From positions 89,142,512 to 89,206,511 of the forward strand of contig OZ023267.1 of NCBI GenBank assembly GCA_964006375.1: a DNA stretch of 64,000 bases, in the 5' to 3' direction. The translations under genes were made by a program, and so were the position numbers. Shown here piece by piece: positions 6,337 to 58,500 of this stretch. The stretch comes from Tillus elongatus. Taxonomy: Eukaryota > Arthropoda > Insecta > Coleoptera > Cleridae. Numbering within the stretch: the stretch's first letter is position 1; the number at the start of each line of letters is the position of its first letter. Under the pieces are notes generated by a model. That model ran no database searches and was not told where the DNA came from. It worked only from the letters and a program-made list of their open reading frames with translations.

Positions 6337-6340
6337 CGCG

Positions 6341-6682: not shown

Positions 6683-6692
6683 GGCGCAGTCG
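6682..6692 (+). other. Primer-binding site, tRNA-Ser type
   Basis: TGGCGCAGTCG directly at the LTR end (its T overlaps the last LTR base) is complementary to the 3' end of insect tRNA-Ser (CGACTGCGCCA). The 17.6/297 group also uses tRNA-Ser. Confidence 0.8.
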
Positions 6693-8454: not shown

Positions 8455-8483
8455 TACAGATAAATTCTGTAAACCACCCTAAA

Positions 8484-12308: not shown

Positions 12309-12352
12309 CATTAGACAAGATCAATGACAACCCCGGACTATTATCAATTAAC

Positions 12353-13990: not shown

Positions 13991-14009
13991 CTTCCCTAAA
14001 TTTTCTATC

Positions 14010-14021
14010 TGGCCCCGGAGG
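14010..14021 (+). other. Polypurine tract of the errantivirus
   Basis: CCCCGGAGG lies directly before the 3' LTR start AGTTATGG. It is short and includes the purines expected to prime plus-strand synthesis. Confidence 0.55.
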
Positions 14022-14363
14022 AGTTATGGTTGCACCACCCGGTATACTACACACACCAAGGCTACTGTCAGCACATATGGGTACGTTGCGCTACACCGGC
14101 TTTTCCGTCGACTCAGCGTCCGGTTGAAGTGCAGCGACATTACCGAGGGGAAATTGATCAGCAATTAATAGTTTATAAATATATGTCGAACATTAATATT
14201 GAACAGTTAGTCTTTGCCATCCAGCCTTAATGGTATTAGATTACTCATATGTATTTTATTGTAATTTTTATATTATTTAAATTTTAATATATATATCGTT
14301 GTACTGTAACTTCAAGTAAATAAATTTAACTTTATGAAGTTCAATTGAAGTACAACTCTAAGT
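14022..14363 (+). repeat. Errantivirus 3' LTR
   Basis: 342 bp, identical to the 5' LTR except at GAAGTGC (5' copy GATTTGC). It is followed by the CGCG target duplication at 14364-14367 and then by resumed BEL gag sequence. Confidence 0.93.
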
Positions 14364-14367
14364 CGCG

Positions 14368-15302
14368 CGAGTCACACACGGAACTTGGACAATTATATGA
14401 CAATACCTTAAAACATTTAAGAGCTTTAAAGGTATTAGGGGAATCAACAGATCATTGGGACCGTATTATTATTCATCTATTGACACAAAAGTTCGATCTT
14501 AGAACTCGCAGGGATTGGGAATCATTTAATTGCGAATCAGAATTGCCAACAATGAAACAAAATTTTCTTAATAATAAATGAGATATTTTAGAAAATCTAA
14601 GTTATGCATATAAAGACAAAACAATAAAACATTTTTGGTTCATCATAATAAGACTGGAACAAACAATCTTTAAACTCTCTTGCATCAACAAATAATGCTC
14701 AAAAATTGGAAACGTTGTCATTTATTAATTATCTTTTTTGTAAAGGTGAACATTGTCTTTATGAATGTAGTGAATTTCTAAAATTACCACTTGTTCAGCG
14801 GTTTGCAGAGGTCAGGGGATTAAGACTCTGCGAAAATGGTTTACGTAACCATCATACGGTATCAGACTGCCAGGCAAGTAAATGTAAATATTGTCAGAAC
14901 CTATATAACTCAATCCTTTGTAACAATGGACCGATAATCCACAAGCAGGTAGCGGGTACCTACAATAACCAACAATCCTTAACGGCCAAACAAATAACAG
15001 GCAAAACATTTATGGCTACCACATCGATGGAAAAACCATTTCAAAATTCACAAAAATATTATCAAAGAGATGTACCGGCATCGGCTTCAGTTGGGTCGAG
15101 CCAGCAATTGTCACACGTACACAATAGCGTTCAGGGTAATCCATCTTATCTACCTGTTTACGCCCTTTTATCAACCGTCATTGTAAATATTAGAAATAAA
15201 CACGGAAAGATATATGAGTGTCGGGCTTTATTGGACAATGCAAGTCAAACTAATTTTATTACAAAGGACTTATGTACAAAGCTTCAAATAGTAAAAAAAT
15301 AA
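14368..15302 (+). pseudogene. BEL/Pao relic: rest of gag and protease region
   Basis: Directly after the errantivirus, gag of the split BEL element resumes (LGQLYDNTLKHLRALK, WDRIIIHLL) to a stop near 14581. From 14706 a second frame has a Cys/His region (CLYEC, HTVSDCQASKCKYC) typical of BEL gag-pol zinc knuckles, then at ~15220 a DNASQTNFI motif, the BEL version of the aspartic protease site. Stops and frame changes separate the parts, so no functional protein is made. Confidence 0.8.

Positions 15303-19022: not shown

Positions 19023-19099
<77 letters not shown>
19023..19099. repeat. (AT)n microsatellite, ~77 bp
   Basis: Pure AT array at the exact outer edge of the inverted duplication's left arm. 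Confidence 0.95.
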
Positions 19100-21758
<2,659 letters not shown>

Positions 21759-22075
21759 AGTAGATAGGGAGTCACCTGGGCCCATCCCCTCCACTTTTTA
21801 CTGCGCATGCGCGTGACGTCATGCGCATGCGCTGACCTGCGCAGACCTGTGACAGTTGACAGCTGACCTGTCAGATTTGACAGGTGTCAAATGTCACTGA
21901 CCTGACAGCTGTCAGCTGTCAGCTGTCAGCTAACCTGACAGCTGTCAACGTCAGCTGTCACCTGACCTGACATGTGTCAACGTCAAATGTCACCTGACCT
22001 GTCAGATGACGTCACAAGCATTCCAAGATGGCTGACCTGTCATAGACAGCCGCAACCCGGGTCTCTATGGAACTG
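21759..22075 (+). repeat. Left terminal inverted repeat of Polinton-like element
   Basis: Matches the inverse of 31690-32000 almost perfectly as far as GGGTCTCTATGGAACTG. Differences are a few substitutions and a small deletion of one CAGCTGT unit. It is built of repeated TGACCTG, TGTCAG and AGCTGTC words, with a dense CRE/NRF1-like block near the end. Confidence 0.9.
21802..21832. promoter_or_regulatory. CRE flanked by NRF1-like sites (left repeat)
   Basis: TGACGTCA, the full cAMP-response-element palindrome, is flanked on both sides by GCGCATGCGC, the NRF1/Ewg-type palindrome. Further in, CCAAGATGGCTGACC resembles a YY1/Pho site. The same cluster is at 31927-31957. Binding is inferred from motif match only. 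Confidence 0.55.
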
Positions 22076-22440
22076 TCTGACCTGAGATGACGTCACAAGC
22101 ATTCCAAGATGGCTGACCTGTCATAGACATCTGCAACTCCGGGGTTCTCTCTATGGAACTAACCTGAGATGTCGTTACAAGCGTTCCAAGATGTCTGACC
22201 TGTGTGTTCATAGATATCTACAAGTCAGGTTAGCTCTCCATGTGTGTGTTTGTCTGATTGTTTATTAAGGTTATGTATTTGTTTATTAAGGTTATGTTCG
22301 CTCACGTGTCATCTGTTTGTTTATTAAGGTTATGTTTGTATTTGTTTATTAAGGTTATGTCATGTGTGTGTTGATTACCATGCATCTGTTTGTTTATTAA
22401 GGTTATGTATTTTGTTTATTAAGGTTAGGTGTTCGTAAAC
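22076..22440. repeat. Subterminal repeats of Polinton-like element, left
   Basis: Two further degenerate units of the GACGTCACAAGCATTCC / AAGATGGCTGACCTG type (about 22085 and 22160) are followed by six copies of TGTTTATTAAGGTTATG between 22258 and 22432. Relatives of both repeats occur inverted at 31210-31690. Confidence 0.75.
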
Positions 22441-22554
22441 ACAGCTGTTTGGTTTGTTTATTGTGTTGTTGTTGTTGTTAAGGTGTATTGAAGTTTGTTA
22501 GGGTATTTCGTTTTTGGCGGGAAATTTGAATTTGTTTGAAAATTTCTGTCTGTT

Positions 22555-22656
22555 GTGTCCAGAGATATGACTCATCGAGCTAGAGAATATTCTATTTGTA
22601 AAGTTGTAGAGTGTAGAGAATATTCTCTAGCTCGATGGGAGACATCTGTTGGACAC
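22555..22656. other. Long hairpin in left arm of Polinton-like element
   Basis: A perfect 21-bp inverted repeat (22573-22593 with 22617-22637; CATCGAGCTAG..TATTCT) encloses a 23-nt loop, and an outer pair GTGTCC/GGACAC (22555-22560, 22651-22656) extends it. It is AT-poor at the base and sits in non-coding DNA. It could be an RNA hairpin or a DNA structure used in replication; nothing shows which. Confidence 0.7.
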
Positions 22657-22780
22657 AGTCATTCGGTTTAGTCACACACACATACATATATGAGGAAGAT
22701 ATATTGAGCGGGTAATTTGAAATTTTGATTTTAATTTGAAATATGATTTTGAAAGAAAAGCGTTCGCCTGAAATTAGATT

Positions 22781-22853
22781 GAATTAGATTCGAACCCCCA
22801 ACCATACAGCTTACTAAGATATGCAAACGTCCCTAAACCGATTATGCTATTCA
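22781..22853 (-). other. tRNA-like sequence, left arm
   Basis: On the minus strand an A-box-like TAGCATAATCGG is followed 40 nt later by a B-box GGTTCGAATC, at tRNA spacing. D, T and acceptor stems do not pair properly, so it is not a working tRNA gene. A diverged relative lies inverted at 30893-30975, and the conserved flank TTCAGGCGAA..CTTTTCTTTC accompanies both. Confidence 0.5.
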
Positions 22854-22856
22854 GAC

Positions 22857-23760
22857 ATACGATGAAAGTTTGTTATCAGTGGGTATATATAAAACAAAAA
22901 CCTGTTACATAAAACGAGTTTATGAGGGTGCTGAGTTTGTGTGTGTGGGCAAAGGTGGTATCTCTATTACATTCCAATTTGAATAATAGGAACTGTAATG
23001 TTAAAAACAATTGTTTATATTTTATAGTAAAAAGAAATTTAAAAGACGTTCCAATTTACCTATCTAATATCATTTTAATAACAAAAAACGTTTGAAGTAA
23101 ACTATATCAATAAGAAAAACGTATTTACATCTAGATATGTTAATGAGATTATTTTAATAGCCTAATAAAACTCGGGGACTTGGTTTTATTGCCGTCGTGT
23201 TTGTTTATGTTAGTGTGTTTGTATTTTGAATGAATGAATCTAAATTTATATAGGGAGTGATCAAAAACACACAAGTAACAAAACTCGATTTAAAACAACT
23301 AAATTAAACTTTGATATACGAGGATTGTTTGATAAGTATTGTTTGTATGTAAACATAAATAATATAATAGTATACTTACATACAGCAAGAGACGTCATAC
23401 TTGTTTCACGGCTTAGTACACACTAACGTATGTTGAGGTCTTGAATGGGGGCCCCGTTATAGAAATAACACAGTTGTTTAATGACATCCACTTGAACCAA
23501 ACAAAACATATAGACGCTGTTGTTGATTGTTAACACACACACACACACGTCATGACAGCTCGAAGTCTTTACTTAGACTGACAGAGCTGTGTAATAAAAG
23601 ACAGACAATTGATTGCCCAACAAGTATCATATAGAACCTTGTTTGAGCTTGTACAGCTGTTTAACAAACACGTCATGACAGCTCGAAGTCTTTGCTTAGA
23701 CTGACAGACAGAAAGGGGTTAATAAAAATGCAACAAAATAAAAATAAAACAACTGTTTTA
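22857..23760. other. Non-coding inner left region of Polinton-like element
   Basis: No gene was seen. Two copies of CGTCATGACAGCTCGAAGTC (23550 and 23668), each followed by CTTAGACTGACAG, and the word CAGCAAGAGACGTCATACTTG (23385) have inverted relatives at 31020-31065 and 30690-30720. The element's arms are thus imperfectly inverted over ~2 kb. A tttatt at about 23774 can be the minus-strand poly(A) signal of the capsid gene. Confidence 0.6.
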
Positions 23761-23826
23761 CATACAATAAAAATTTATTAGGATTAATTAAGTTGTACAT
23801 ATTGATACATAAATGACATACTATTA

Positions 23827-25125
23827 TTACATAATGGCTCTAACGATGCCCGTTGGAGGTTTATATTCCATTACACTGTCATGAATAACCAGACAATAAA
23901 CACGAGTATTTTTTGGGAAGTTGGCGTGACTCATAAACTCCACCTTAATGTCCACCGTTGAAGACTTGATTGACTCGTTCTGGTGCTGACAGTCAATCAC
24001 AAATAGAGCTCTGTCTTTAAACTCGTCATAATTCAAGATAGGCTCCGACATGTTTTTATAACAGAAGCTTTTTTGAAAATCTGTATACATGTTATAGGCT
24101 TCTGCATATTTCGATTTCTCAAAATCCATATTCATAGATTCATAAGGGTAGCATTCTGAATTTAGAAACACTCGAAGGTCCATCATACCAATGTTATCGA
24201 AATAGTCTGACCTCTTCTTCACGTTATCCTTACGATCTGTTTGAAATGCTATAATCACATATCGAGGTCTTTCCAAGTTGGTTGCAGTTTTAACAGCCCA
24301 CACATCTCTGTTGATATCTCTGAGTGCTGGTAACTCGTATATGTCCCATTTGCGGTAGGCGAGAAATATAGAGGTGTCTTTGGCTATTTTATCCATCAGT
24401 TCCAATTTCATTTTATCATTGGGAAAGACATGTTTTACCTTTAAAAACATATTGGTTACGGTAATTTTTGCTCGTGCCGTACCTGTGCTGTAATAGCCAT
24501 TGGAATCGTTTCGACTTCTTGTAAAGCGGAAAGTATGTTTGCCACAGAGAACTCCTTTGAAATGATGAAAGAAACTGAAGAGGAACCAGACAGGTATGAG
24601 CATGTGAAACTTGTTATCATTTAAGGTGATGTGCTCCGACGACACATTCAGACCGGCGTTGCTAAGAGATTGGGCTTCATTCTTACTGAACGATAGCAGA
24701 CTTTTGATGATGGTTGTGGTGTATGGGTCTCGCACTCGTTCCACTTCCTTGTTATTTAACTCATAGGTCATTGATTCAAACAGAGCTGCTCCTCCATTAT
24801 TTGACAGATAACAAGCACCAGTGGCATTTTGGATTGCTACAGGTTCCAGAGCACCTTCGATTATTAGAGCTGACTCGGCCAGACATACGAACGCATCTTG
24901 TTGGTTGATGGCTATTTCAATTTCATCGCTGTTACCAAACGATTTAGTTGGTGAATAGTAAGAGCGCAGCTCTTCTCGATCGATGCCATCATCAAACACG
25001 GGTTCTTTGAATATTTCTAGTTTTGACGACATGATAACCCAGGCTTTGCAGGAACTCAATATTATCGGGACGAAGCGTACCCTTTGACGTGTCTGACTCA
25101 ACTGAATTTGATGTGGTAGATGCAC
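23827..25125 (-). CDS. Capsid-like protein of Polinton-like element (probable major capsid)
   Basis: 432 aa from the first ATG, or 401 aa from an ATG at 25032 that opens MSSKLEIFKEPVFDDGI, the more natural start because the upstream 31 residues look unlike the rest. The protein is beta-rich with regular alternation and has no membrane span or enzyme motif. Features include YYSPTKSFGNSDEIEIAIN near the start, GGAALFESMTYELNNKE around residue 110-130, and a C-terminal block VEFMSHANFPKN. By size, beta content and position beside a smaller beta-rich protein and a packaging ATPase, I infer a double jelly-roll major capsid protein. I recognise it as a family found in many invertebrate genomes but cannot prove the fold by eye. 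It lies 29 bp downstream of the 236-aa gene and is probably co-transcribed. No stop or frameshift. Confidence 0.6.
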   Translation of the reverse strand: MHLPHQIQLSQTRQRVRFVPIILSSCKAWVIMSSKLEIFKEPVFDDGIDREELRSYYSPTKSFGNSDEIEIAINQQDAFVCLAESALIIEGALEPVAIQNATGACYLSNNGGAALFESMTYELNNKEVERVRDPYTTTIIKSLLSFSKNEAQSLSNAGLNVSSEHITLNDNKFHMLIPVWFLFSFFHHFKGVLCGKHTFRFTRSRNDSNGYYSTGTARAKITVTNMFLKVKHVFPNDKMKLELMDKIAKDTSIFLAYRKWDIYELPALRDINRDVWAVKTATNLERPRYVIIAFQTDRKDNVKKRSDYFDNIGMMDLRVFLNSECYPYESMNMDFEKSKYAEAYNMYTDFQKSFCYKNMSEPILNYDEFKDRALFVIDCQHQNESIKSSTVDIKVEFMSHANFPKNTRVYCLVIHDSVMEYKPPTGIVRAIM

Positions 25126-25154
25126 TTGCTTTTATATCCTTGAAGACCAACATA

Positions 25155-25865
25155 CTAAGCAACTTTTATAAGTTTCAAGCGAACAGACACCTCTTCACCT
25201 TGAAAGTTGACAGGAACTGAATCTTGGTCGACGATGTCGATGCTTATATTGGAAATCTCTTGCTTGTTCACCGGTAAGTAAATTAAATTTTTAGGTTCTA
25301 TGTCGATTGCGTAGCCAGGATCAACCATCGGAGCAAACTCATACAGCGTATGTGAGGGTTGTCCGTTATAATAGGAACCAGACACGATATTGGTTTCGAT
25401 GCGAATCTGTCTAACATCCACTATATCAACAGGTAAATCAGATTCATAAAAGGTGTCCGGATGAAGAACTTGTTTTGAAAAGCCCAACATTCGCCCAATC
25501 GAACCATCAAATTCAAAACTGACATTTGTATAACACTTTAGTCTGCATTTGATGGTGTTCGGATTAGGTCTCAGAATCAGAGCCTGTTGCTTTTGTTCGT
25601 GTGTTGCTGTAGCACCAACAAGTTCATTTTGAAGTAACTCTTCCAAGTGTGTTATTTCATAAGCACCGGTGGGTATCGTGATGGTTCGCCAACCGGTTCC
25701 TTCTTTTACATGAAATTTGTTTTTACCTTCATAGATGTTGGGTATGTTGTTGTAGGTGTGAAAGCCTATCAAGGCAACAGCATAATTACCATCCAAAACA
25801 ATTGGTGGATGGTAGTCTGACGACAGATGGGAGCTGCGGTCTTTCAACACAAAGGTGTGCGCCAT
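25155..25865 (-). CDS. Small beta-rich capsid-like protein (possible penton/minor capsid)
   Basis: 236 aa with a clean ATG at 25865 (MAHTFVLKDRSS). Predicted strands dominate and there is no membrane span or enzyme motif. Recognisable blocks are YHPPIVLDGNYAVALIGFHT at ~18-38, IPTGAYEITHLEELLQNEL at ~65-83 and GRMLGFSKQV at ~122-131. Its size and place directly before the larger capsid-like gene fit the penton or minor capsid of Polinton-like viruses, a single jelly-roll protein. This is inference from synteny and appearance. It is intact. The small hydrophobic/basic gene lies 68 bp upstream on the same strand. Confidence 0.55.
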   Translation of the reverse strand: MAHTFVLKDRSSHLSSDYHPPIVLDGNYAVALIGFHTYNNIPNIYEGKNKFHVKEGTGWRTITIPTGAYEITHLEELLQNELVGATATHEQKQQALILRPNPNTIKCRLKCYTNVSFEFDGSIGRMLGFSKQVLHPDTFYESDLPVDIVDVRQIRIETNIVSGSYYNGQPSHTLYEFAPMVDPGYAIDIEPKNLIYLPVNKQEISNISIDIVDQDSVPVNFQGEEVSVRLKLIKVA

Positions 25866-25933
25866 GACTGATACACACAGGCTACTGTTTCAGTCTTTTA
25901 TTGCATTGGTTTTTGCAGATACAACCCATAACC

Positions 25934-26407
25934 CTAGCGCTGTTTCTTGAGATACATGCCTTTGCCCAGTCTCTTGCATTTTGGCTTAAATTTCAAGCCA
26001 CTCCCTCTCCTACCCATAGCGATGGCTTCCATTGTTTTGTTGTGTCGTTCTTCCTCCTCTAGTTTCTGTTTCGCAGACTTGGCATCGTTCACGGCTTTGG
26101 CAATACCTGCAGCACCGCCACCCAGAGCTCCTAGTGCTGACAGCCCACCAAATATAAGAGGCAACAACGGAATGAAGCCTCCACTTTTAGGTATTGGAAT
26201 AACTCGAGGTGTCTGCACATTCTTACGTCCACCAATGTTTCTAACGATTGTATGAGCTATATCAAACACGGCGTTCGCTGTTGGAATAAGGTTTCTATCT
26301 TTTATAACTTCCTCAATCAGACTTAGTATGTTTTTAAAGGGGACCTTCTTCTTTGGCTTTGAGTTGATTACATAAAACCCCTCATCAAGTTTTCTGTTAA
26401 CTTTCAT
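25934..26407 (-). CDS. Small basic protein with Gly-rich hydrophobic segment
   Basis: 157 aa from ATG at 26407. Three parts are visible: a basic N-terminus (to ~25), a Gly/Ala-rich hydrophobic segment at ~77-105 (GFIPLLPLIFGGLSALGALG) that could span or bind a membrane, and a charged helix (~108-128) leading to a strongly basic tail ending KRLGKGMYLKKQR. Adenovirus-like and Polinton-like viruses have small core or membrane-lytic proteins of this build beside their capsid genes, so a virion protein that contacts DNA or membrane is plausible. I do not recognise a named family. It is first in the minus-strand run of three structural genes. Confidence 0.5.
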   Translation of the reverse strand: MKVNRKLDEGFYVINSKPKKKVPFKNILSLIEEVIKDRNLIPTANAVFDIAHTIVRNIGGRKNVQTPRVIPIPKSGGFIPLLPLIFGGLSALGALGGGAAGIAKAVNDAKSAKQKLEEEERHNKTMEAIAMGRRGSGLKFKPKCKRLGKGMYLKKQR

Positions 26408-26565
26408 GGTGTTTGTAACGCTAGCAACGTTTCAGCAAAACCTGTATCTGTCTTTGTTAATAACAACCCTCACTCTGTGACACCAACATGCATACTGACT
26501 GGGTGTCTCACTTGCATTCATTTATATATACACACCCAATAAAATATAGTTTAGTTTAAGTTAAG
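26408..26565. promoter_or_regulatory. Divergent promoter region of Polinton-like element
   Basis: 158 bp separate the minus-strand structural genes from the plus-strand ATPase. TTTATATATAC at ~26520 lies ~45 bp before the ATPase ATG and can serve as TATA box for it. AGTTTAGTTTAAGTTAAG follows it. Confidence 0.5.
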
Positions 26566-27261
26566 ATGCGTACCAGCAAACACGCTTCTGCCTTACCCAT
26601 TACAAATATAGACGATGTTGTTACGGACACAGCTCAACAACAACTGAGGCATGGTCCTCTCTTTCCAAACACCGTTCGCTGTATCATATGTGGTCCGAGT
26701 GGTTGTGGTAAAACTAATGTCATGCTGAGTTTATTGTTTGAAGCAAACGGTTTAAAATTTGATAACGTGTATGTGTATTCAAAGTCTCTGTATCAACCGA
26801 AATACAAGATGTTAAAGGAGGTGATGAATGCAACAAAAGGTGTTGGTTACTATCCTTATAGAGAAAACGATGAAATATTAGATCCGGCAGATGCCAAGGA
26901 CAACTCTGTGTTTATATTTGATGATGTAGCTTGTGACAAACAAGATAAAATAAGAGCATACTTCAGTATGGGCAGACATAAGAATATTGATTCATTCTAT
27001 CTCTGTCAAACATATACACGAATACCCAAGCATCTGGTACGTGACAACACCAACGTTATTGTGTTATTCAAGCAAGATGAAACCAATTTAAAACATGTGT
27101 ACGACGATCATGTAACCACCGATATGGACTTTAAACAATTTAAAACTATCTGCCACCAATGCTGGAAAGATAATAAGTATGGTGTGTTGGTGATTGTGAA
27201 GGAAAACGATGTACACAAAGGTCGATATAGAAAAGGATTCGATAGATATATATTATTCTAA
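26566..27261 (+). CDS. A32/FtsK-HerA-type packaging ATPase
   Basis: 231 aa from ATG at 26566. Walker A is GPSGCGKT at residues 43-50 and Walker B is VFIFDDV at ~115-121. FYLCQTYTRIPKHLVRDNTN at ~144-162 fits the motif that follows Walker B in the poxvirus A32-like genome-packaging ATPases of Polintons, virophages and related viruses. These enzymes pump DNA into preformed capsids. Length is normal for the family (200-300 aa) and all nucleotide-binding residues are present. It is the clearest viral marker in the element and points to a virion-forming ancestor. The frame is intact. A 13/15-bp minisatellite starts right behind its stop codon. Confidence 0.88.
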   Translation: MRTSKHASALPITNIDDVVTDTAQQQLRHGPLFPNTVRCIICGPSGCGKTNVMLSLLFEANGLKFDNVYVYSKSLYQPKYKMLKEVMNATKGVGYYPYRENDEILDPADAKDNSVFIFDDVACDKQDKIRAYFSMGRHKNIDSFYLCQTYTRIPKHLVRDNTNVIVLFKQDETNLKHVYDDHVTTDMDFKQFKTICHQCWKDNKYGVLVIVKENDVHKGRYRKGFDRYILF

Positions 27262-27264
27262 CAA

Positions 27265-27735
27265 TGGTAGACAGGACAGCTGTCTAAGACAGCTGTCTAA
27301 CACAGCTGTCTAACACAGCTGTCTAAGACAGCTGTCTAACACAGCTGTCTAACACAGCTGTCTAACACAGCTGTCTAAGACAGCTGTCTAAGACAGCTGT
27401 CTAACACACAGCTGTCTAACAGACAGCTGTCTAACACACAGCTGTCTAACAGACAGCTGTCTAACAGACAGCTGTCTAACACACAGCTGTCTAACACACA
27501 GCTGTCTAACACACAGCTGTCTAACAGACAGCTGTCTAACACACAGCTGTCTAACACACAGCTGTCTAACAGACAGCTGTCTAACACACAGCTGTCTAAC
27601 ACACAGCTGTCTAACAGACAGCTGTCTAACACACAGCTGTCTAACAGACAGCTGTCTAACACACAGCTGTCTAACACACAGCTGTCTAACAGACAGCTGT
27701 CTAACACAGCTGTCTAACAAGACAGCCGGACATCG
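27265..27735 (+). repeat. AGCTGTCTAA minisatellite (13- then 15-bp units)
   Basis: About 30 head-to-tail copies of AGCTGTCTAACAC / AGCTGTCTAAGAC (13 bp, to ~27400), then AGCTGTCTAACACAC / AGCTGTCTAACAGAC (15 bp). Each unit holds the palindrome CAGCTG within CAGCTGTC. The same AGCTGTC word is repeated in the terminal inverted repeats. There are no unique spacers, so it is not a CRISPR array. Repetitive Leu-Asp-Ser-Cys frames on the minus strand are by-products. Confidence 0.9.
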
Positions 27736-27811
27736 TGATAAATAAGAAGGCATGTACCGTGACAGAGTCAGTATATGTTAAACCACCACACAACCTGTAT
27801 CGCTCAAACAA

Positions 27812-28981
27812 ATGATTAGACCGACTGGTAACACCAAAAACAGTTGTAGCACAATGGAAGTGTTGGGTAAGGAAGAGCGAAAAGTTAAGAGAAGGATTTT
27901 ACAACTTGCTGACAATATTCGAAAAAAACATTTAATGCTTAAACTTAACAGAGCTGAGAATGATGATGCTCTGCAACGTTTATATAAACCACTTGTTGAG
28001 CCCCTAAGTGAAATAGCTAAAAACACAGCAGCACTGCAGCAGCAACAGCCATCGTAACCACCAAAGGTTGAACAAATCAAAGACGAAGTCGATATACCAG
28101 AAACGAAACCCCAAGTACAGTTCCTTAAAGACCATGAAGTTTTTGAAGCTGAACCAAGGGAAGAGGCTGAGGCGACAAGTTCCGATGAGGACATCCCAAC
28201 ATTTGAAGAGCTTGAGGCAGACCTACAAACTGTCACAACCAACCCTGCATATCAAGAATTTTTGGAGCAATATCCTGAACGAGTTCGATATTATGTAGAC
28301 AAGTATTTTACTGAACCACCGAGGCTTGCTACTATTGATCAAACGTATGGTGCTCGCTACGCTAAAGATACTGGTAGCTGGAGTCTTGGCAACAAACACT
28401 TGGACTTTACTGATGCTGAGATTCAACTGGGCCAAAGGAGATACCCGCAAACACAAGGTTTGCTAGAATTGATATTTATGAAAACACCTAGAGGGTATAC
28501 CTATGATGATCTTCAACACTATAGAGATATTCTAGAAGCAACTAGTGTTCATAAAATGAACTATGATCCTAACGCACGAACCAAGGGTTGTTCCTCTGAA
28601 AAGTATCTGACTCTAATAAAACCAGTGATAAATCCACGAGGTCGTAGATCCTCAACACCTCAAGGTTTTGGTTACACCTACGAGGAAGACGATGACGACA
28701 GCAACGACAGACATCTTAACAAAAAACAAAAGACTGAACTTAAAACTCAGAGTGATAAGAGCAGCGATAGCAACGGCATGAGCCCTAACAACAACATCAG
28801 CACCAACAACTATATGATACAAAATAACAAACAAATAGCCTATGTGTATTGGAATGACATAAACGAGTTGGTTGACAGACTTAGACTTTTAGTGGCTTCC
28901 CAAGTTGCAGGTAATAATGCTCATAACAACGAAATTCAGTCAATCTTGGAAGAACTAAAAGAAGCTAGTGTTATCACCTAG
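27812..28981 (+). pseudogene. DUF8207-type protein of Polinton-like element, one in-frame stop
   Basis: A single frame runs from ATG 27812 to the stop at 28981 (390 codons) and is interrupted only by a TAA at 28055-28057. The N-terminal part (~80 aa) is a charged helical region (EERKVKRRILQLADNIRKKH, LYKPLVEPLSEI). After the stop comes an acidic linker, then the recognisable core: YYVDKYF, then TIDQTYGARY, LTDAEI-like and a GLLELIFMKTPRGYTYDDLQ block, ending in an Asn/Asp-rich linker and a C-terminal helix. From memory this is the DUF8207 family found next to Polinton-like capsid genes in invertebrates; its role is unknown. The stop may be a mutation or a read-through point. Translation could also restart at the ATG at 28262. 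A poly(A) signal AATAAA is at ~29114. Confidence 0.75.
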
Positions 28982-29159
28982 TAAACCCACAGCCATGAAG
29001 AGGCACCAACGACAACAACAACAACAGCACCAACGCAACACTGAACCATCTAATGTTAATAATTCTATAAATGTATTCCAACAAAGAGTTTACATACTTG
29101 TACTTAGAATCAAATAAAAGTCTTTGTTAAAATTACTGTGTTTTTATTTTGTAATACAA

Positions 29160-30185
29160 TTAAAAAGTATGTCGTAAAGCAATAATATCCTGAACAAACT
29201 TATCTTGTGGTACATCTGCTATATGTAGGTTGTTTCTATGTGCTGTAAGGTATTTCACTTCAGTCTTGATTCTGTTAAAGAGGTTTACTGAATTTGGATC
29301 GTACAGCTTGTTTAGGATCACTTGGGCGTTGGGGTGTTTATTTTTAAAGTTCCTCACAGCCCTGGGGAAACTTTTCTTTTGTGTTCTTACAGCATGATAT
29401 GGATAGGGGGCGTCTTTCTCGTTTCTTGCAAGTAAACCAAACACACTTATTTTTCCCAGGTTACTTGGCTTTGGGGATATATCTTCAAGATATTCTGTGA
29501 CTTTAGCATTTGTTTCTCGCATACGCTGCAACTCATCATTTATCTCCATTAATTTTACTTCAATCGCATCTAGGCTGTCCCTGTATTTCTGATCAAATTC
29601 GTTTAGGAAAAAATCATAAATAATTTGGTTGCATTTTTTATAGAACTGATTGGATATCCAACAAGCCAAATTTAATATTAAATCTTTACACACATATGTA
29701 CCAGATATCAAGTTGTTTTCAGCCTGTCTCCCACCAAAGTCCACCAGATATGTAGCTGTTGTTGGTATTACTTGAGTTGTTGCTTCCGTTTTAAGGGGGC
29801 TAGTAGTCCAGCTCCCTGGCGATAACTCTAAGTGGGCTCCCTCAGTTGAAATATTGAGGGTATCGGTATTCAGATACCCTGACTCTTCCTTTAGCAGACT
29901 GTTGTAATAGGCAATCAGCTCTTTAGTTTTCTTATTTTCCAACCAATGATACATTTTTTTATTACTAGTTTTACACAGTTTAGTTGCATTAAAATAGCCA
30001 GTGTTTTTATCGATAATAAGTTGAAAGTCTCCAAATAGACCATACCAGAAGTTGTCTTTAATTTGTTGGTAACACACATCACTTAATGTAGCCATTTTGA
30101 AACAGATTTGGGTAGAGTAAACTGCAGTAAGTCTTTTCTCAACAACAACTGAATTGTGAATGAGCTTTAGAGTGTGTGTACCCAC
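29160..30185 (-). CDS. KilA-N domain protein of Polinton-like element
   Basis: 341 aa from the ATG at 30185, or 311 aa from an ATG at 30095 (MATLSDVC) just before the domain, which is the likelier start. The KilA-N pattern is clear: FWYGLFGDFQLIIDKNTGYF, NATKLC, YHWLENKKTKELI, and after an insert VCKDLILNLACWISNQFY. A helical linker follows, and then a C-terminal domain (FGLLARNEKDAPYPYHAVR..) of the kind that follows KilA-N in large DNA viruses. KilA-N is a DNA-binding domain of phages and eukaryotic DNA viruses, so a regulator or replication accessory factor is likely. Nothing interrupts the frame. It converges with the DUF8207-type gene. Confidence 0.85.
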   Translation of the reverse strand: MGTHTLKLIHNSVVVEKRLTAVYSTQICFKMATLSDVCYQQIKDNFWYGLFGDFQLIIDKNTGYFNATKLCKTSNKKMYHWLENKKTKELIAYYNSLLKEESGYLNTDTLNISTEGAHLELSPGSWTTSPLKTEATTQVIPTTATYLVDFGGRQAENNLISGTYVCKDLILNLACWISNQFYKKCNQIIYDFFLNEFDQKYRDSLDAIEVKLMEINDELQRMRETNAKVTEYLEDISPKPSNLGKISVFGLLARNEKDAPYPYHAVRTQKKSFPRAVRNFKNKHPNAQVILNKLYDPNSVNLFNRIKTEVKYLTAHRNNLHIADVPQDKFVQDIIALRHTF

Positions 30186-31689
30186 TTTATATATGCTGCC
30201 ACAACAGCCGTTTTTAAAACCATATTTGTTTTCACAGAAACCTTACTAAATGTGTGTGTGTCTACAAATACGTTGTTTCTTATGGGAAACGTATCAAAAG
30301 CTCTATATTAGGCTAAAATACATGTAATCTTATGGGAAATAGAAACGATTTAAGGTGTGAGCAGGGGCCTTTTCTACAAACACAAATAATGTGATGATGT
30401 CATCCTTTGGGTTTTGTCTGTATTCTAGACAAGCTCAAACACGAATAATGGGGTGATTGAACAGATATAACACAAGATAACATTCGCCAAGGTCATCAAC
30501 CGACACGTTGTTTACCTTTAAGAGGGCCTCTCTCTTGCGTATATTAAACAGATACACAGACAAGCTCAAACAGGATCAAGGTTAACAACTGTAAAACGTT
30601 GTTTATCCTTTGTAAGGCCTCTCTCTCTTACATCAGTTTGTTTCCTCAATACAAGAGACAGAGACACTTGTTCAGTATGTGTTAAGTCGTGAAACAAGGA
30701 TGACGTCTCTTGCTGTATGTAAGTACACTCTTATTATTATGTCTGTTTGCATTCAAATAACAAATACAAACATAACCTTACTAAACAATCAGATGATTGG
30801 TAATCAACATGTATACGAACACCTAACCTCATATGTCAACAACAACTGGCTTTGTTTTATATATACAACAGCGAACAAACTTTTAACGTGTGTGTCTGTG
30901 GAGCTATTGGTTTAGGGACAGTGTATATCTGAGAAAGCTGTCTATGGCCGATTCGAGGTTCGTGGGTTCAAATCTAAGTTCAGGCGAATGCTTTTCTTTC
31001 AAATACACATGCATCTGTCAGTTTAAGCAAAGACTTTGAACTGTCATGACGTGTTTGTTAAACAGCATGTATAAGCTTCAACAATGGCAATCAGTTGTCT
31101 GTCTGTCTGTATCCTCAACACAGGAGACACTTGTTCAATAGTGTGTGTATTAAGCTGTGAAAGAAGGCTAACGTCTCTTGTTGTATGTAAGTACAATCTT
31201 GTATTATCTCTGTTTGCATTCAAATAACAAATACATAACCTTAACAAACAATCAGACAGCTGGTATTCGACAAACACACATGGAGACCTGACTTGTAGAT
31301 ATCTATGGACACAGGTCAGACATCTTGGAACGCTTGTGACGTCATCACAAGACAGTTAATACCTAACATGACTTGTAGATGTCTCTCTGTACAGGTCAGA
31401 CGGAACATCTTACGTCATCACAGGTCAGACATAAGACAGTTAATACCTAACCTGACTTGTGGCTATCTATGAACAGGGTTTGCCATCTTGGAACATCTGA
31501 CGTCATCACAGGTCAGACATAAGACAGTTAATACCTAACCTGACTTGTAGATATCTATGGACACAGGTCAGACATCTTGGAACGCTTGTGACGTCATCTC
31601 AGGTCAGTTAATACCTAACCTGGGGCTGTAGCTATCTCTCTCTCTCTCTCTCTGGACAGGTCAGACGGAACATCTTACGTCAGCACAGG
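30186..31689. other. Non-coding right arm of Polinton-like element
   Basis: No gene was seen. Repeats are plentiful. GTGTTAAGTCGTGAAACAAG at ~30678 and TGTATTAAGCTGTGAAAGAA at ~31144 are each followed by ACGTCTCTTG(C/T)TGTATGTAAGTAC. From ~31280 to 31690 there are five to six units of the CAGGTCAGACATCTTGGAAC / ACGTCATCACAGG type. These are inverted relatives of the left arm. Confidence 0.7.
30893..30975 (+). other. tRNA-like sequence, right arm
   Basis: GGAGCTATTGGTTTAGGGAC resembles an A box and GTGGGTTCAAATC a B box. Inverted and diverged relative of 22781-22853. The cloverleaf is not convincing. Confidence 0.45.
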
Positions 31690-32000
31690 TCAGTTCCATA
31701 GAGACCCGGGTTGCGGCTGTCTATGACAGGTCAGCCATCTTGGAATGCTTGTGACGTCATCTGACAGGTCAGGTGACATTTGACGTTGACACATGTCAGG
31801 TCAGGTGACAGCTGACGTTGACAGCTGTCAGGTTAGCTGACAGCTGACAGCTGTCAGGTCAGTGACATTTGACACCTGTCAAATCTGACAGGTCAGCTGT
31901 CAACTGTCACAGGTCTGCGCAGGTCAGCGCATGCGCATGACGTCACGCGCATGCGCAGTAAAAAGTGGAGGGGATGGACCCAGGTGGGGCCCTATCTACT
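31690..32000 (-). repeat. Right terminal inverted repeat of Polinton-like element
   Basis: Inverse of 21759-22075. The outer TGGGGCCC differs from the left AGTCACC, and one AGCTGTC unit fewer is present. Confidence 0.9.
31927..31957. promoter_or_regulatory. CRE flanked by NRF1-like sites (right repeat)
   Basis: Mirror copy of the 21802-21832 block: GCGCATGCGC, TGACGTCA, GCGCATGCGC. Confidence 0.55.
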
Positions 32001-32228
32001 TGTATGACATGAAGTTGTTTTTATATGTCAACGTCAACTTATGACCGATTATCGACAAAAAGAAGGTAAATCTACAGAGACACTTAAACAGTATAGGAGG
32101 TGTACTAATTATGTGAAATTGACTTATAATAGAGGAAGACACACCCTTCTTTAGCTTCATATAAAAGGAACGATCGCCGAAGATGTGTTGAACTTTGCAA
32201 TGATATATATGTGCTAAAACGACAATTA
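32001..32228 (-). repeat. Right arm of large inverted duplication (outer part)
   Basis: After the target duplication TGTATG the arm continues to CGACAATTA at 32228 and matches the inverse of 19101-19340 (GCGATCG..CGAAGATGTGTTG and others). The two halves show that the Polinton-like element inserted after the duplication formed. Confidence 0.85.
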
Positions 32229-35277: not shown

Positions 35278-35676
35278 GTATTGTTACAAAGCACTTCAAT
35301 AGACGTAGGTGCGGTGTTGCCACATCTCCAGAATTTCCCCAACATCTGGGAATTTTTGCACAATCTGGCAACACCGCCTCCCCACCCCCCTGGGGGTGCC
35401 TGGGGTGACCCCCCTCAGGCGAAGTCTCAACCCTCTAGGACCAGAAATAACGAAGTTACCAACTTGTACCCCGTCGGAACGGATAACTGAGGTCTGCACA
35501 TTCCGAACACCCTGTATATACACCCTGTATACGTAGACAACCCTTACACCCTGTATACGCAGAGAGATCTTATAGTTCGAGAAACACCTCTTGTGTGACA
35601 TAGGAGTGGTGACCACATTTGGATCATCCTGTATATACATCCCCCTGTATACACACGGGACCGATCTGTATTCACA

Positions 35677-35730
35677 GAACCTTCTAGTAAAAGAAGGTCC
35701 TGGAACGTTCTGGAATGGAATGCTCTAGAA
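35677..35730 (+). promoter_or_regulatory. Heat-shock element array in Gypsy 5' LTR
   Basis: Eight 3-bp units stand at exact 5-bp steps from 35693 to 35730: GAA, TCC, GAA, TTC, GAA, GAA, CTC, GAA. Six are perfect GAA/TTC units and two have one mismatch. A further GAAccTTC pair is at 35677-35684, one base out of register. The TATA box starts 22 bp downstream. HSF trimers bind three or more such units, and arrays of this size next to TATA are typical of hsp genes. Heat induction is inferred. Confidence 0.8.
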
Positions 35731-35751
35731 AGGAGGGGAAGGTACGGCGAG

Positions 35752-35760
35752 TATATAAAA
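35752..35760 (+). promoter_or_regulatory. TATA box of Gypsy 5' LTR
   Basis: TATATAAAA, 22 bp after the last heat-shock unit. Transcription would start around 35785, near GAGTTAGTTGAGTTCAGT. Confidence 0.75.
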
Positions 35761-36030
35761 GCGGAAGCAAGCCAGCCCGAGTTAGTTGAGTTCAGTAAGA
35801 GAATGTGGTAGTGACTTGAAGAAGCAGTGTAAAGTGTTAAGAGAGTAGTGACTGTAGTACCAGATTAGTGACTTTTGTTGAGAGTAGTAATTGTAAGGCC
35901 AGTAAATGAAGTGTTTTGTGAGAGAGACATTCTAGAAATTTTATTGTATCCATATTTAGAGTGTAAATAAAGTTGTTTTGTTAAAATTAAAAGTCTCACT
36001 TATCCAGAACCCGGAGAAAACGTAACAATT

Positions 36031-36048
36031 TGGTGTCAGAAGTGTGGG
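36031..36048 (+). other. Gypsy primer-binding site
   Basis: TGGTGTCAGAAGTGTGGG, three bases after the LTR end, has the TGG start and position of a tRNA primer site. The tRNA was not identified. Confidence 0.65.
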
Positions 36049-36087
36049 ATAAGTGAGTGAAGAAGTGAACAAGCAAGCTAGCTGTAA

Positions 36088-39000
36088 ATGGTAAACACCA
36101 GATCGACTGACTACGACAAGATGGCTGAAATCAAAGAGTTGATGGACTTACTGAAAAAGCAACGTGAAGAAGACGAACAACGACGACAAGAAGAAGAAAG
36201 AAGACGGCGCGAAGAAGACGAACGACGGCGGCAAGAAGATAAAGAAGACCTCAAGAGGCAACGCGAAGAAGGCGAACAACGACGACAAGAAGAAGAAAGA
36301 AGACGGCGCGAAGAAGTCGAGAGAAGACGACAAGAGGAGGAACAGAGGCGACAAGAAGATAAAGAAGAGCTCCGAAGTATGTTCCACAATATAAGAGTTG
36401 ATGTAAAAGAAGAAATTGAACAGATCAACGAACAAATAGAAAATGTGGACAAGAAAGTAGAAAATGTGGACAAGAAAGTAGAAAATGTGGACAAGAAAGT
36501 AGAAAATGTAACAGAGGATTTGAATAAACGATGGGAAGAAGTGGAAGGGTTGAAAGAACAAATGAAGATGATGATGAAAGGCACAGAAGTCAGACATAGA
36601 GAACTGACAGAGCAGGTGATGGGCCAGACTGACAGAACTCAACCAAGAGGAGTTACTGGAATGTCCCCAGTTCAAAATCGTCGGGAAGAAGATATGCCAA
36701 TCGTGCAGCAGCCTCATGGAACTTTGAAGCCGCCGACTTTTGACGGAGAAACATCGTGGCCCATGTACAGGAGGCAGTTTGAGGCGGCAGCTCTCAGCAA
36801 TGGGTGGAGCGAACAACAGGCAGCAACTGCTCTAATTCTCTCGCTTCGAGGTAAAGCCCTAGAAATCCTCCAGAACATCCCGGAGTCGAAACAGCAAAAC
36901 TACTTAACAGTGATACAGGCCCTAGATTTGAGATATGGTAACAAGTACATGAGCCAGGTCTACCAGACACAACTAAAGTCAAGGGTCCAGAAGCCAAATG
37001 AGACGCTGCAAGAATTTAGTGCCGAAGTGGAGAAACTTGTGCGACTGGCATATCCCCAAGCCCCAGAAGAATTTGTCAACCAGATAACCGTCCAGACCTT
37101 CATCGATGGGGTACTTGACAACGAGATGCAACAAGATTTAAGGCTCGGAAGATTCAAAACACTTACAGACTGCGTCATCTATGGCTTGCAATTTGAAGCA
37201 GCGAAGAATGCATCTCAACCTCGCCGCAACAGGCTGCGCGAAGTGAAGGAGATAGAGGACCATGCAGACACGACAGAGGAACTAAGGCGAGAAATCAAGT
37301 TGATGAAGGAAGCCATAAGCAAGCTCACTGCAACGGTTGGAGCACGTAGGAAGAAAGCAGATTGGTCAGACATAGAATGTTACAAGTGTGGTAGGAAAGG
37401 ACACATAAGTAGGCAGTGCTCACAAACCCAACAGGTGGCATGCAGAAGACAAGAATACACCAACAGGGAGCGCCATCAGGGAAAACGACCTGACGCCAGT
37501 GTAGGTGGGCGACACGTGGCATGCGAGACCCAATGCCCCAAAGTCAGGGTCTCCACTATCCGACGCTGCCGCGAGAGCCTCGTCATACCTGGCAGCATAG
37601 ACGGAAGACAATGCAGTTTTACCATCGATACTGGCGCCACTACATCCGTTGTACGTCCAGACATGTTGCCAAACAGGTCGGCACTCACGACCAACAAACA
37701 GCCTGTGTTGGAGACGGCAAAAGGAGATAGGATACCCGTGCATGGAGAGGCCACTGTTTACATTAGGCTGGGCAGTACTGAGCTACAGGTAAGGGCTGTT
37801 GTCGCAGAAATCGTCGACGAATTTATTCTGGGCCTGGATTTAATGGAAGAGTTCGATGTCCTTTCAGTAGACTTCCAGAATAAGATCTTGAAAATCGGTA
37901 ACGAAGAGTTGTATTTATCTCCACCAACAGGCGAAGCTAATCCCAGGGTGAGACTTATTGTCGACGAAGATACACGGATTCCTGGTAACAGTGAGAAGAT
38001 TGTCAGAGCCAGGCTAGAGAAGAAACTTGATGGTATGACTGCTCTCATAGCGGAGCCCCTAAAAGATAGGCATGATGGTGCCCTCGTCGCACGATGCTTA
38101 GTAGACCCGAAGAGGACAATACCCATAAGAGTGGCTAACGTACAAACTAACAGGGTCACATTGAAGAGAGGTGAAGTTATCGCCACTTGCGAACCCATTG
38201 ACCGAGTGACGTTGTCCAAAAACGTGACACCCACTGCATTAGACAGAAGACTGCCAGTAGAAATGGTAGAGCGGTTCAAGAATTCTTGGGGCCAATTGAA
38301 CGACATGGAGATGGAAATGGCCCTGAAGTTCGTATTGGAGGAGGCCGATATTTTCGCTCAAGATAAAATCACAGGTCGTACGAGTCTAGTGCAACACAGA
38401 ATTAATACTGGCGACGCAAGACCAATTAGACAGCCGCCGAGAAGACTGCCTTTTGCCAAGCAATCAGAAATCAAGGCGATGGTTAACGAAATGCTGGAAG
38501 ATGGTGTGATCGAGGAGTCTAATAGTCCTTGGTCGTCCCCAGTAGTTTTGGTCACCAAGAAAGATGGCACTATGAGATTTTGCGTGGACTATAGAAAGCT
38601 GAATGATGTCACCAAGAAAGACAGTTATCCCCTGCCCCGGATCGACGACACTTTGAACACTTTGGCCGGATCAAAGTGGTTCTCTACATTATACCTGAAA
38701 AGTGGCTACTGGCAAGTAGAACTCCATAAAGACGATAAGGAGAAGACTGCTTTTTCAACCGGGAATGGGTTGTACCAATTCAAGGTCATGCCATTCGGCT
38801 TATGTAATGCTCCTGCCACCTTCGAGCGACTAATGGAGTTAGTGCTGAGAGGACTTACATGGGAAACATGCCTGGTGTATCTCGACGATGTCATGGTGAT
38901 TGGAAGGACTTTCGATGAACACCTGTCGAATCTGAAGCAGGTTTTCTCCAGGCTGAGAGGTGCCAATCTGCAACTCAATCCCAAGAAATGCGTCCTCTTC

Positions 39001-39690
39001 CAGAAGAAAGTGAGTTTCCTCGGACATGTCGTTTCTGAGAAGGGGATAGAAACTGATCCAGAGAAAATAAAGGCAGTAAGAGACTGGCCTGTGCCGAAGA
39101 ACAAACATGAGGTCAGAAGTTTTCTGGGACTTTGCAGCTACTACCGACGCTTTGTGAAGTACTTCAGCAGCATTGCGAAACCTCTGCATAGCCTGACTGA
39201 AAATAAGGTTGAGTTCATCTGGTCACCAGATTGCCAAGAGTCTTTTAGAGAACTCAAACATCGTCTTCTCACTGCTCCTATACTGGCTTATCCTCGGGAC
39301 GAAGGACTGTTCATACTGGACACCGATGCTTCCCAGTATGGCATTGGGGCAGTACTCTCACAGCTCCAAGCCGGAGAAGAAGTTGTGATAGGCTACTTCA
39401 GCAAAACGTTCGGAAAAGCAGAAAGAAATTACTGTGTAACCCGGAAAGAACTGCTGGCAGTTGTAAGATCCATCGAACATTTCCACAGCTTCCTGTACGG
39501 AAGAACATTCCGCGTGAGGTCAGATCACTCTGCTCTGCAATGGCTTCTGAACTTTAGAAATCCTGAAGGACAGATAGCACGATGGATAGAGAAACTGCAG
39601 AGCTACGACTTCCGGATTGAACATCGAAGAGGAAGAAGTCACGCCAATGCAGACAGCCTGTCGAGAAGACCATGTTCAGTGCATGAATGA
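36088..39690 (+). CDS. gag-pol: Gypsy Gag-Pol (gag, protease, RT, RNase H), RT site altered
   Basis: 1,200 aa from ATG 36088, ending at TGA 39688-39690. Residues ~25-110 form an extreme Glu/Arg/Gln coiled coil with three direct repeats of KKVENVD behind it (~122-145). The gag core follows, then a CCHC knuckle CYKCGRKGHISRQC at ~431, a protease DTGA at ~514, RT, and RNase H with DTDASQYGIG at ~1078. The RT motif A reads TLYLKSGYW: the codon at 38692 is TAC (Tyr 869) where the family has the catalytic Asp. YLDD (Asp 933/934) is intact. Without the first Asp the enzyme should not polymerise. The TGA falls in a C-x2-C-like linker before integrase. This copy can at best be mobilised in trans. Confidence 0.9.
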   Translation: MVNTRSTDYDKMAEIKELMDLLKKQREEDEQRRQEEERRRREEDERRRQEDKEDLKRQREEGEQRRQEEERRRREEVERRRQEEEQRRQEDKEELRSMFHNIRVDVKEEIEQINEQIENVDKKVENVDKKVENVDKKVENVTEDLNKRWEEVEGLKEQMKMMMKGTEVRHRELTEQVMGQTDRTQPRGVTGMSPVQNRREEDMPIVQQPHGTLKPPTFDGETSWPMYRRQFEAAALSNGWSEQQAATALILSLRGKALEILQNIPESKQQNYLTVIQALDLRYGNKYMSQVYQTQLKSRVQKPNETLQEFSAEVEKLVRLAYPQAPEEFVNQITVQTFIDGVLDNEMQQDLRLGRFKTLTDCVIYGLQFEAAKNASQPRRNRLREVKEIEDHADTTEELRREIKLMKEAISKLTATVGARRKKADWSDIECYKCGRKGHISRQCSQTQQVACRRQEYTNRERHQGKRPDASVGGRHVACETQCPKVRVSTIRRCRESLVIPGSIDGRQCSFTIDTGATTSVVRPDMLPNRSALTTNKQPVLETAKGDRIPVHGEATVYIRLGSTELQVRAVVAEIVDEFILGLDLMEEFDVLSVDFQNKILKIGNEELYLSPPTGEANPRVRLIVDEDTRIPGNSEKIVRARLEKKLDGMTALIAEPLKDRHDGALVARCLVDPKRTIPIRVANVQTNRVTLKRGEVIATCEPIDRVTLSKNVTPTALDRRLPVEMVERFKNSWGQLNDMEMEMALKFVLEEADIFAQDKITGRTSLVQHRINTGDARPIRQPPRRLPFAKQSEIKAMVNEMLEDGVIEESNSPWSSPVVLVTKKDGTMRFCVDYRKLNDVTKKDSYPLPRIDDTLNTLAGSKWFSTLYLKSGYWQVELHKDDKEKTAFSTGNGLYQFKVMPFGLCNAPATFERLMELVLRGLTWETCLVYLDDVMVIGRTFDEHLSNLKQVFSRLRGANLQLNPKKCVLFQKKVSFLGHVVSEKGIETDPEKIKAVRDWPVPKNKHEVRSFLGLCSYYRRFVKYFSSIAKPLHSLTENKVEFIWSPDCQESFRELKHRLLTAPILAYPRDEGLFILDTDASQYGIGAVLSQLQAGEEVVIGYFSKTFGKAERNYCVTRKELLAVVRSIEHFHSFLYGRTFRVRSDHSALQWLLNFRNPEGQIARWIEKLQSYDFRIEHRRGRSHANADSLSRRPCSVHE

Positions 39691-39753
39691 AAATTTTGCG
39701 AGCGACAAGAGAACAAAGAGATCGACAAAGTAACTCATCAGATCAAACAACTG

Positions 39754-41139: not shown

Positions 41140-41151
41140 GGAGGGGGGCAG
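41139..41151 (+). other. Gypsy polypurine tract
   Basis: AAGGAGGGGGGCAG lies directly before the 3' LTR (TGTTAC at 41152). Confidence 0.8.
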
Positions 41152-41887
41152 TGTTACAAAGCACTTCAATAGACGTAGGTGCGGTGTTGCCACATCTCCA
41201 GAATTTCCCCAACATCTGGGAATTTTTGCACAATCTGGCAACACCGCCTCCCCACCCCCCTGGGGGTGCCTGGGGTGACCCCCCTCAGGCGAAGTCTCAA
41301 CCCTCTAGGACCAGAAATAACGAAGTTACCAACTTGTACCCCGTCGGAACGGATAACTGAGGTCTGCACATTCCGAACACCCTGTATATACACCCTGTAT
41401 ACGTAGACAACCCTATACGCAGAGAGATCTTATAGTTCGAGAAACACCTCTTGTGTGACATAGGAGTGGTGACCACATTTGGATCATCCTGTATATACAT
41501 CCCCCTGTATACACACGGGACCGATCTGTATTCACAGAACCTTCTAGTAAAAGAAGGTCCTGGAACGTTCTGGAATGGAATGCTCTAGAAAGGAGGGGAA
41601 GGTACGGCGAGTATATAAAAGCGGAAGCAAGCCAGCCCGAGTTAGTTGAGTTCAGTAAGAGAATGTGGTAGTGACTTGAAGAAGCAGTGTAAAGTGTTAA
41701 GAGAGTAGTGACTGTAGTACCAGATTAGTGACTTTTGTTGAGAGTAGTAATTGTAAGGCCAGTAAATGAAGTGTTTTGTGAGAGAGACATTCTAGAAATT
41801 TTATTGTATCCATATTTAGAGTGTAAATAAAGTTGTTTTGTTAAAATTAAAAGTCTCACTTATCCAGAACCCGGAGAAAACGTAACA
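41152..41887 (+). repeat. Gypsy 3' LTR
   Basis: 736 bp. It has the same elements as the 5' LTR, minus one 10-bp CCTGTATA-containing unit near 41412. Confidence 0.92.
41537..41590 (+). promoter_or_regulatory. Heat-shock element array in Gypsy 3' LTR
   Basis: Same GAA/TTC array as at 35677-35730, followed by TATATAAAA at 41612-41620. It could drive transcription into flanking DNA after 41645. Confidence 0.8.

Positions 41888-57490: not shown

Positions 57491-58474
<984 letters not shown>

Positions 58475-58500
<26 letters not shown>

What the first reader, a model, noticed from the sequence alone, without database searches (positions are those of the whole stretch)
21759..32000. Polinton-like element with exact 6-bp target duplication but no polymerase, integrase or protease
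Ends (AGTAGATAGG / CCTATCTACT), ~315-bp inverted repeats and TGTATG at 21753-21758 and 32001-32006 are seen directly. The empty target exists in the same window in inverted form near 19333, so the insertion can be subtracted exactly. The gene set is packaging ATPase, two beta-rich capsid-like proteins, a small basic hydrophobic protein, DUF8207-type and KilA-N. Known Polintons carry pPolB and an RVE integrase; none is visible here and the two non-coding arms (~1.6 kb each) leave little room. The element looks like a virion-module satellite that borrows replication and integration, or a distinct virus lineage with an unrecognised replication system (perhaps via KilA-N).
Basis: partly seen in the sequence, partly recalled or inferred. 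Interest (0 to 1): 0.9.

Follow-up and report, generated by a model that had tools for sequence, protein, structure and literature searches.

The report
Capsid-only Polinton in an insect genome
A 10-kb virus-like element, probably in a beetle genome, carries genes for a virus shell and for packing DNA but none of the usual genes for copying or inserting itself, so it most likely depends on complete relatives.

Summary
A 10,242-bp element (21759-32000) has inverted repeats, a TGTATG duplication and an exact empty-site paralogue at 19525-19098. It encodes a double-jelly-roll major capsid protein (PF21738; fold), a penton (fold), a small basic protein, an A32-type packaging ATPase, a PF26634-family protein (broken by one stop) and KilA-N/DUF3627. 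No intact polymerase, RVE integrase or C5 protease fits: no unassigned reading frame exceeds 157 codons.

The MCP lies in a supported clade whose named members are beetles. Published Spodoptera Mavericks have ATPase and ORF7 proteins of matching size plus POLB, INT and PRO (PMC5803895). One penton relative has a C5-like protease segment read into its N terminus (below Pfam's cut-off). Most likely this is a non-autonomous, capsid-bearing Polinton mobilised in trans; a polymerase-free virus lineage is less likely but not excluded.

New: the palindrome GACAGCTGTC occurs 17 times in the window, all inside the element: two near each end, 13 in an internal array.

The decisive test, other genomic copies with these ends, could not be run: the genome search answered none of 20 requests.

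The parts
21753..21758 (.). left target-site duplication TGTATG
   Evidence: read directly
21759..22072 (+). left terminal inverted repeat (near-identical part; weaker homology to 22233)
   Evidence: 307 aligned, 4 substitutions, one 7-nt gap; 484 columns at 87.8%
21904..21946 (.). two GACAGCTGTC palindromes in the left repeat
22073..23826 (.). left non-coding arm, with repeat blocks shared, in other order, with the right arm
   Evidence: no stop-to-stop frame above 63 aa lies in the left arm
23827..25032 (-). major capsid protein, double jelly roll, 401 aa, intact
25155..25865 (-). penton (single jelly roll plus insert), 236 aa, intact
25934..26407 (-). 157-aa basic protein (pI 10.5) with a hydrophobic Gly/Ala/Leu stretch; candidate core or membrane-active virion protein (inferred)
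   Evidence: no Pfam hit
26566..27261 (+). packaging ATPase, 231 aa, A32/FtsK type with Walker A GPSGCGKT and B-like VFIFDD
   Evidence: Pox_A32 3.6e-9; motifs
27276..27719 (.). tandem array, about 31 copies of a 15-bp unit, with 13 GACAGCTGTC palindromes (the first starts at 27275)
27812..28981 (+). PF26634-family (DUF8207-type) gene, interrupted by one in-frame stop at 28055-28057
   Evidence: frames; homologues; conserved C-terminal motif
29160..30095 (-). KilA-N + DUF3627 protein, 311 aa, intact
30096..31693 (.). right non-coding arm with 80-90 bp repeats
31694..32000 (-). right terminal inverted repeat (near-identical part; weaker homology from 31535)
31820..31855 (.). two GACAGCTGTC palindromes in the right repeat
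32001..32006 (.). right target-site duplication TGTATG
19098..19525 (-). paralogous empty target site (single TGTATG at 19327-19332)

Best explanation
A non-autonomous Polinton/Maverick of an insect (probably a beetle) that keeps the ends and the virion module but not the replication, integration and maturation genes. Shown: integration with 6-bp duplication; intact near-identical terminal repeats; intact frames for MCP, penton, 157-aa protein, ATPase and KilA-N; predicted capsid folds. Inferred: a complete Polinton in the same cell supplies protein-primed PolB, acting on the shared-type ends, RVE integrase, which cuts and joins the ends giving the 6-bp duplication, and adenain protease; the element supplies its own shell and packaging motor and so can be encapsidated and spread, as a satellite or as cargo. 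The palindromic GACAGCTGTC sites in both ends and in the internal array are a candidate binding site for a dimeric element-encoded factor (KilA-N or PF26634 protein) or for a host bHLH factor. This particular copy is probably not fully functional, because the PF26634 gene has a stop.
For: Ends, TSD and empty site. DJR MCP and penton, A32 ATPase. No unassigned stop-to-stop frame exceeds 157 aa, whereas published insect Maverick POLB is 1162 aa and INT 310 aa (PMC5803895 section 11). 18 of the 35 frames of 60 aa or more were scanned against Pfam and none hit PolB, rve or C5; the other 17 overlap assigned genes, the array or the right end. The same paper's ATP (228 aa) and ORF7 (404 aa) match the window ATPase (231) and MCP (401) in size; BLAST identity was not tested. 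MCP in a 21-row clade (100/99) whose named members are beetles. C5-like segment read into the penton frame of relative P0133. Precedent: Yutin et al. 2015 propose that integrated PLVs without an integrase could use integrases of resident Polintons in trans (PMC4642659, passages seen).
Against: No helper Polinton and no second copy was seen: the genome search did not complete. The gene order is not a simple internal deletion of the Spodoptera layout, in which eight small ORFs share one strand; here ATPase and PF26634 gene run opposite to the capsid genes. The C5 match in P0133 is below Pfam's cut-off (17.7 against 21.3 bits). No virion evidence. Viral- and genome-contig scans found no relative with which to compare gene content.
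Confidence: 0.57

Rival explanations
1. A rearranged internal-deletion copy of one autonomous beetle Polinton family: a one-off defective copy, moved once by its parent, not a lineage.
For: All inferred relatives of the genes belong to an ordinary insect family; the PF26634 gene is broken; intact frames are also expected in a young deletion copy; one relative seems to have a protease beside the penton.
Against: Capsid frames, 157-aa protein, ATPase and KilA-N are all intact and no fragment of PolB, INT or PRO was recognised in the 18 of 35 frames scanned. MCP and penton sit on long end branches (0.79 against a median of 0.18; 1.06 against 0.47), which is more like a separate lineage, though poor sampling gives the same picture.
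Confidence: 0.28
2. A distinct autonomous virus lineage that replicates with an unrecognised system (KilA-N or PF26634 protein plus host polymerase, acting on the GACAGCTGTC sites) and integrates by an unrecognised enzyme.
For: GACAGCTGTC 17 of 17 inside the element, symmetric in both ends; KilA-N is a DNA-binding domain (recalled); long branches.
Against: A 6-bp duplication with long inverted repeats is what Polinton integrase leaves (recalled); no integrase candidate frame remains; PF26634, MCP and penton families are widespread in the protein collection (44, 157 and 145 hits), so they are not special to a polymerase-less element.
Confidence: 0.1
3. Assembly artefact: a collapsed or mis-joined complete Polinton.
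For: The region is repeat-rich.
Against: Exact TSD, both ends and an exact empty-site paralogue; divergent and convergent gene layout without truncated frames.
Confidence: 0.05

Closest known systems
Insect Polintons/Mavericks (for example Spodoptera Maverick 1 and 2, PMC5803895, section 11 part 1 read)
   Same: ATPase of about 230 aa, protein of about 400 aa (here the DJR MCP), one of about 158 aa; the same kind of virion module
   Different: They have POLB 1162 aa, INT 310 aa, PRO 133 aa and CAP 258 aa (PLA2 domain); here none of these was found. Eight small ORFs on one strand there; two divergent blocks plus KilA-N here
Polinton-like viruses (PLV; Yutin 2015, PMC4642659, passages seen)
   Same: MCP + penton + ATPase without protease; mostly no RVE integrase; integrated members without integrase proposed to borrow one in trans
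   Different: PLVs are defined by a PgVV-like MCP and most carry primase-helicase or polymerase genes; here the MCP is the insect PF21738 type and no replication gene is recognised; known PLVs come from algae, protists and metagenomes
Mavirus and Sputnik virophages
   Different: Virophages depend on giant viruses and code for protease and a replication protein (recalled); no sequence-level match here
Adintoviruses / Eupolintoviridae (ICTV 2025, PMC12451622, passages seen)
   Same: Animal-associated Polinton virion genes
   Different: Drosophila-associated adintovirus 1 codes for PolB and integrase (PMC8363768, passages seen); absent here

Membership tests
Polinton/Maverick (Polintoviricetes) | Protein-primed PolB | tested here: not met
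   no unassigned frame above 157 aa; no PolB hit in the 18 of 35 frames scanned; core gene per PMC3671162 (passages)
Polinton/Maverick (Polintoviricetes) | RVE integrase | tested here: not met
   same calls; rve domains in the window lie only in LTR elements among the proteins scanned
Polinton/Maverick (Polintoviricetes) | C5 (adenain-like) protease | tested here: not met
   no C5 hit in the 18 of 35 frames scanned; identifiable in 74% of Polintons per PMC4028283 (passages)
Polinton/Maverick (Polintoviricetes) | Packaging ATPase (A32/FtsK type) | tested here: met
   Pox_A32 3.6e-9, above the curated cut-off; Walker motifs
Polinton/Maverick (Polintoviricetes) | DJR major capsid protein | tested here: met
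Polinton/Maverick (Polintoviricetes) | Single-jelly-roll penton next to the MCP | tested here: met
   gene adjacent upstream of the MCP
Polinton/Maverick (Polintoviricetes) | Long terminal inverted repeats and 6-bp target duplication (the 6-bp rule is recalled) | tested here: met
Polinton-like virus (PLV) | PgVV-like MCP | tested here: inconclusive
   PF21738 MCP; a Tetraselmis virus S1 protein is the top BFVD match of the penton, but no direct comparison with PgVV MCP was made
Polinton-like virus (PLV) | MCP + penton + ATPase without protease | tested here: met
   no C5 hit in the 18 of 35 frames scanned
Virophage | Replication dependent on a giant virus | not testable with these tools
   needs infection experiments
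Satellite of a Polinton (functional class) | A complete helper Polinton with compatible ends in the same genome | not tested

The most novel reading that the evidence does not exclude
A self-maintaining lineage of capsid-coding, polymerase-less Polinton satellites in insects: it builds and fills its own shells but borrows replication and integration, and it marks its DNA with a palindromic GACAGCTGTC signal (both ends and an internal array) bound by its own KilA-N or PF26634 protein, for origin choice or packaging.
Probability: 0.2. Interest if true: 0.8.

Novelty: new variant of a known kind. Interest (0 to 1): 0.52.

Why it matters
Polintons that lost capsid genes are described (Krupovic 2014: nine elements without MCP also lacked PRO and ATPase; PMC4028283, passages). 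The reverse, a capsid module kept between good Polinton ends while polymerase, integrase and protease are gone, would be a satellite strategy in animals and would show that Polinton proteins act in trans and that virion formation itself is selected. The exact empty site makes the insertion event clear, and the palindromic repeat gives a testable cis signal.

Tried and rejected
Adenain-type cleavage sites in the 157-aa protein: two matches, not significant (16% of shuffles reach it). Relatives in viral contigs by MCP, MCP alignment, penton alignment, ATPase and PF26634 alignment: none; in prokaryote genome contigs: none. Solved-structure searches by sequence: no meaningful match for MCP, penton or ATPase; the penton profile hit adiponectin at 0.0035, taken as chance. 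PHROGs: weak hits only, except KilA-N to phrog_129 (1.2e-13) and others. Rfam and tRNA: nothing. A sixth-gene reading of the arms: no Pfam family above its cut-off. Paper searches for PF21738, DUF8207, or capsid-only or nonautonomous Polintons in insects found none describing this; the library lacks most subscription papers, and two papers I asked for were not held, so I do not claim that nothing is in print. The protein-homologue lists were capped at 120 of 157 and 120 of 145. Trees used thinned sets: 57 of 120 MCP relatives (P0034, a fused or odd gene model, dropped) and 44 of 120 penton relatives (P0133 dropped as a fusion). The window penton has no starred grouping, so the beetle placement rests on the MCP only.

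Full report
OBSERVATION. The element is 10,242 bp (21759-32000). Its terminal 10-mer occurs only at the two ends. The near-identical part of the inverted repeat is 314/307 nt with 4 substitutions and one 7-nt gap; weaker homology extends to 475 nt. TGTATG flanks both ends. The flanks, joined in a script, match 19525-19098 on the minus strand at 96% over 430 columns with one TGTATG. That paralogue is the other arm of a longer palindrome around 19.1-21.7 kb, so the element lies inside one arm. This is an insertion, not a chance pairing.

WHAT IS MISSING. Of 35 stop-to-stop frames of 60 aa or more, 18 were scanned against Pfam, with no PolB, rve or C5 hit; the other 17 lie over assigned genes, the array or the right end. 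The longest unassigned frame is 157 aa. Spodoptera Mavericks have POLB of 1162 aa, INT of 310 aa and PRO of 133 aa (PMC5803895, section 11 part 1 read), so intact versions of the first two cannot be present, and no C5 was recognised. Decayed fragments in unscanned frames are not excluded.

RELATIVES. The MCP has 157 database relatives (120 listed), the nearest 52% identical. Among the 16 named ones listed, the best five are beetles (Sitophilus twice, Exocentrus, Phaedon, Harmonia) and the other 11 are Hymenoptera. In a 58-row tree the window MCP lies in a 21-row clade (100/99) whose four named members are beetles, on a long end branch (0.79 against a median of 0.18). The penton has 145 relatives, including beetle proteins and one filed under a Rickettsia endosymbiont of a weevil, probably host contamination (inference). 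In the penton tree the window again has a long end branch (1.06 against 0.47) but no well-supported group. The host is therefore an insect, probably a beetle; this is inferred, not given. Relative P0133 is a 340-aa frame in which about 100 residues resembling adenovirus C5 protease precede the penton (C5 at 0.0031, 17.7 bits, below the 21.3 cut-off; a weak ASFV S273R match at 0.028). So at least one relative probably has a protease gene next to the penton, where the window element has the 157-aa gene.

CIS SIGNALS. GACAGCTGTC, a perfect palindrome, occurs 17 times in the 64 kb, all in the element: two in each terminal repeat and 13 in the 27276-27719 array (expected 0.00). The array copies are tandem repeats and the two ends are repeats of each other, so these are not 17 independent events; what is unusual is that two differently built arrays share the palindrome. 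TGACGTCA occurs 8 times, all in the terminal blocks (expected 0.65), and GCGCATGCGC 4 times, all there. These resemble known transcription-factor sites (CRE, NRF1; recalled). A binding or origin role is inference.

MECHANISM. The best-supported account is a non-autonomous Polinton whose ends are still recognised, moved by enzymes of a complete Polinton, and possibly packaged in its own shell. Integration, ends and capsid frames are shown; the helper, replication in trans and virions are inferred. Yutin et al. proposed integrase supply in trans for integrated PLVs (PMC4642659, passages). The gene order differs from a simple deletion of the Spodoptera layout, which argues mildly against a one-off deletion copy; the broken PF26634 gene argues that this copy is not fully active.

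LIMITS. The decisive comparison, copies with the same ends in this genome, could not be made: 20 identical genome-search requests were unanswered. No DNA locus of a relative could be fetched, so relatives are known only as proteins.

VERDICT. Observation confirmed; interpretation partly supported; new variant of a known kind; interest 0.52.

Noticed in passing
6340-14373: LTR retrotransposon with 353-bp LTRs 98.9% alike and three long ORFs; the pol frame carries RT, RNase H and rve, and the third frame (12263-13990) is a baculovirus-F-like envelope (2.7e-37): an errantivirus-like element.
   Followed up: partly
35282-41887: Second LTR retrotransposon with roughly 740-bp LTRs 98.7% alike; its gag-pol is split into two adjacent frames (36088-39690 and 39691-41139).
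   Followed up: partly
58424-61075: Non-LTR retrotransposon ORF2 with endonuclease and reverse transcriptase domains.
   Followed up: no
19098-21758 and 32001-32228: Long palindrome of TA-rich DNA (arms up to 98-100% alike in blocks); the Polinton-like element lies in its right arm.
   Followed up: partly
22073-23826 and 30096-31693: Both arms share repeat blocks in different order, including copies with a TGTATGTAAGTACA-like core, so the arms may once have been longer inverted repeats.
   Followed up: no
21759-22300 and 31250-32000: TGACGTCA (8 of 8 in the window) and GCGCATGCGC (4 of 4) lie only in these terminal blocks, as in a promoter or enhancer.
   Followed up: partly
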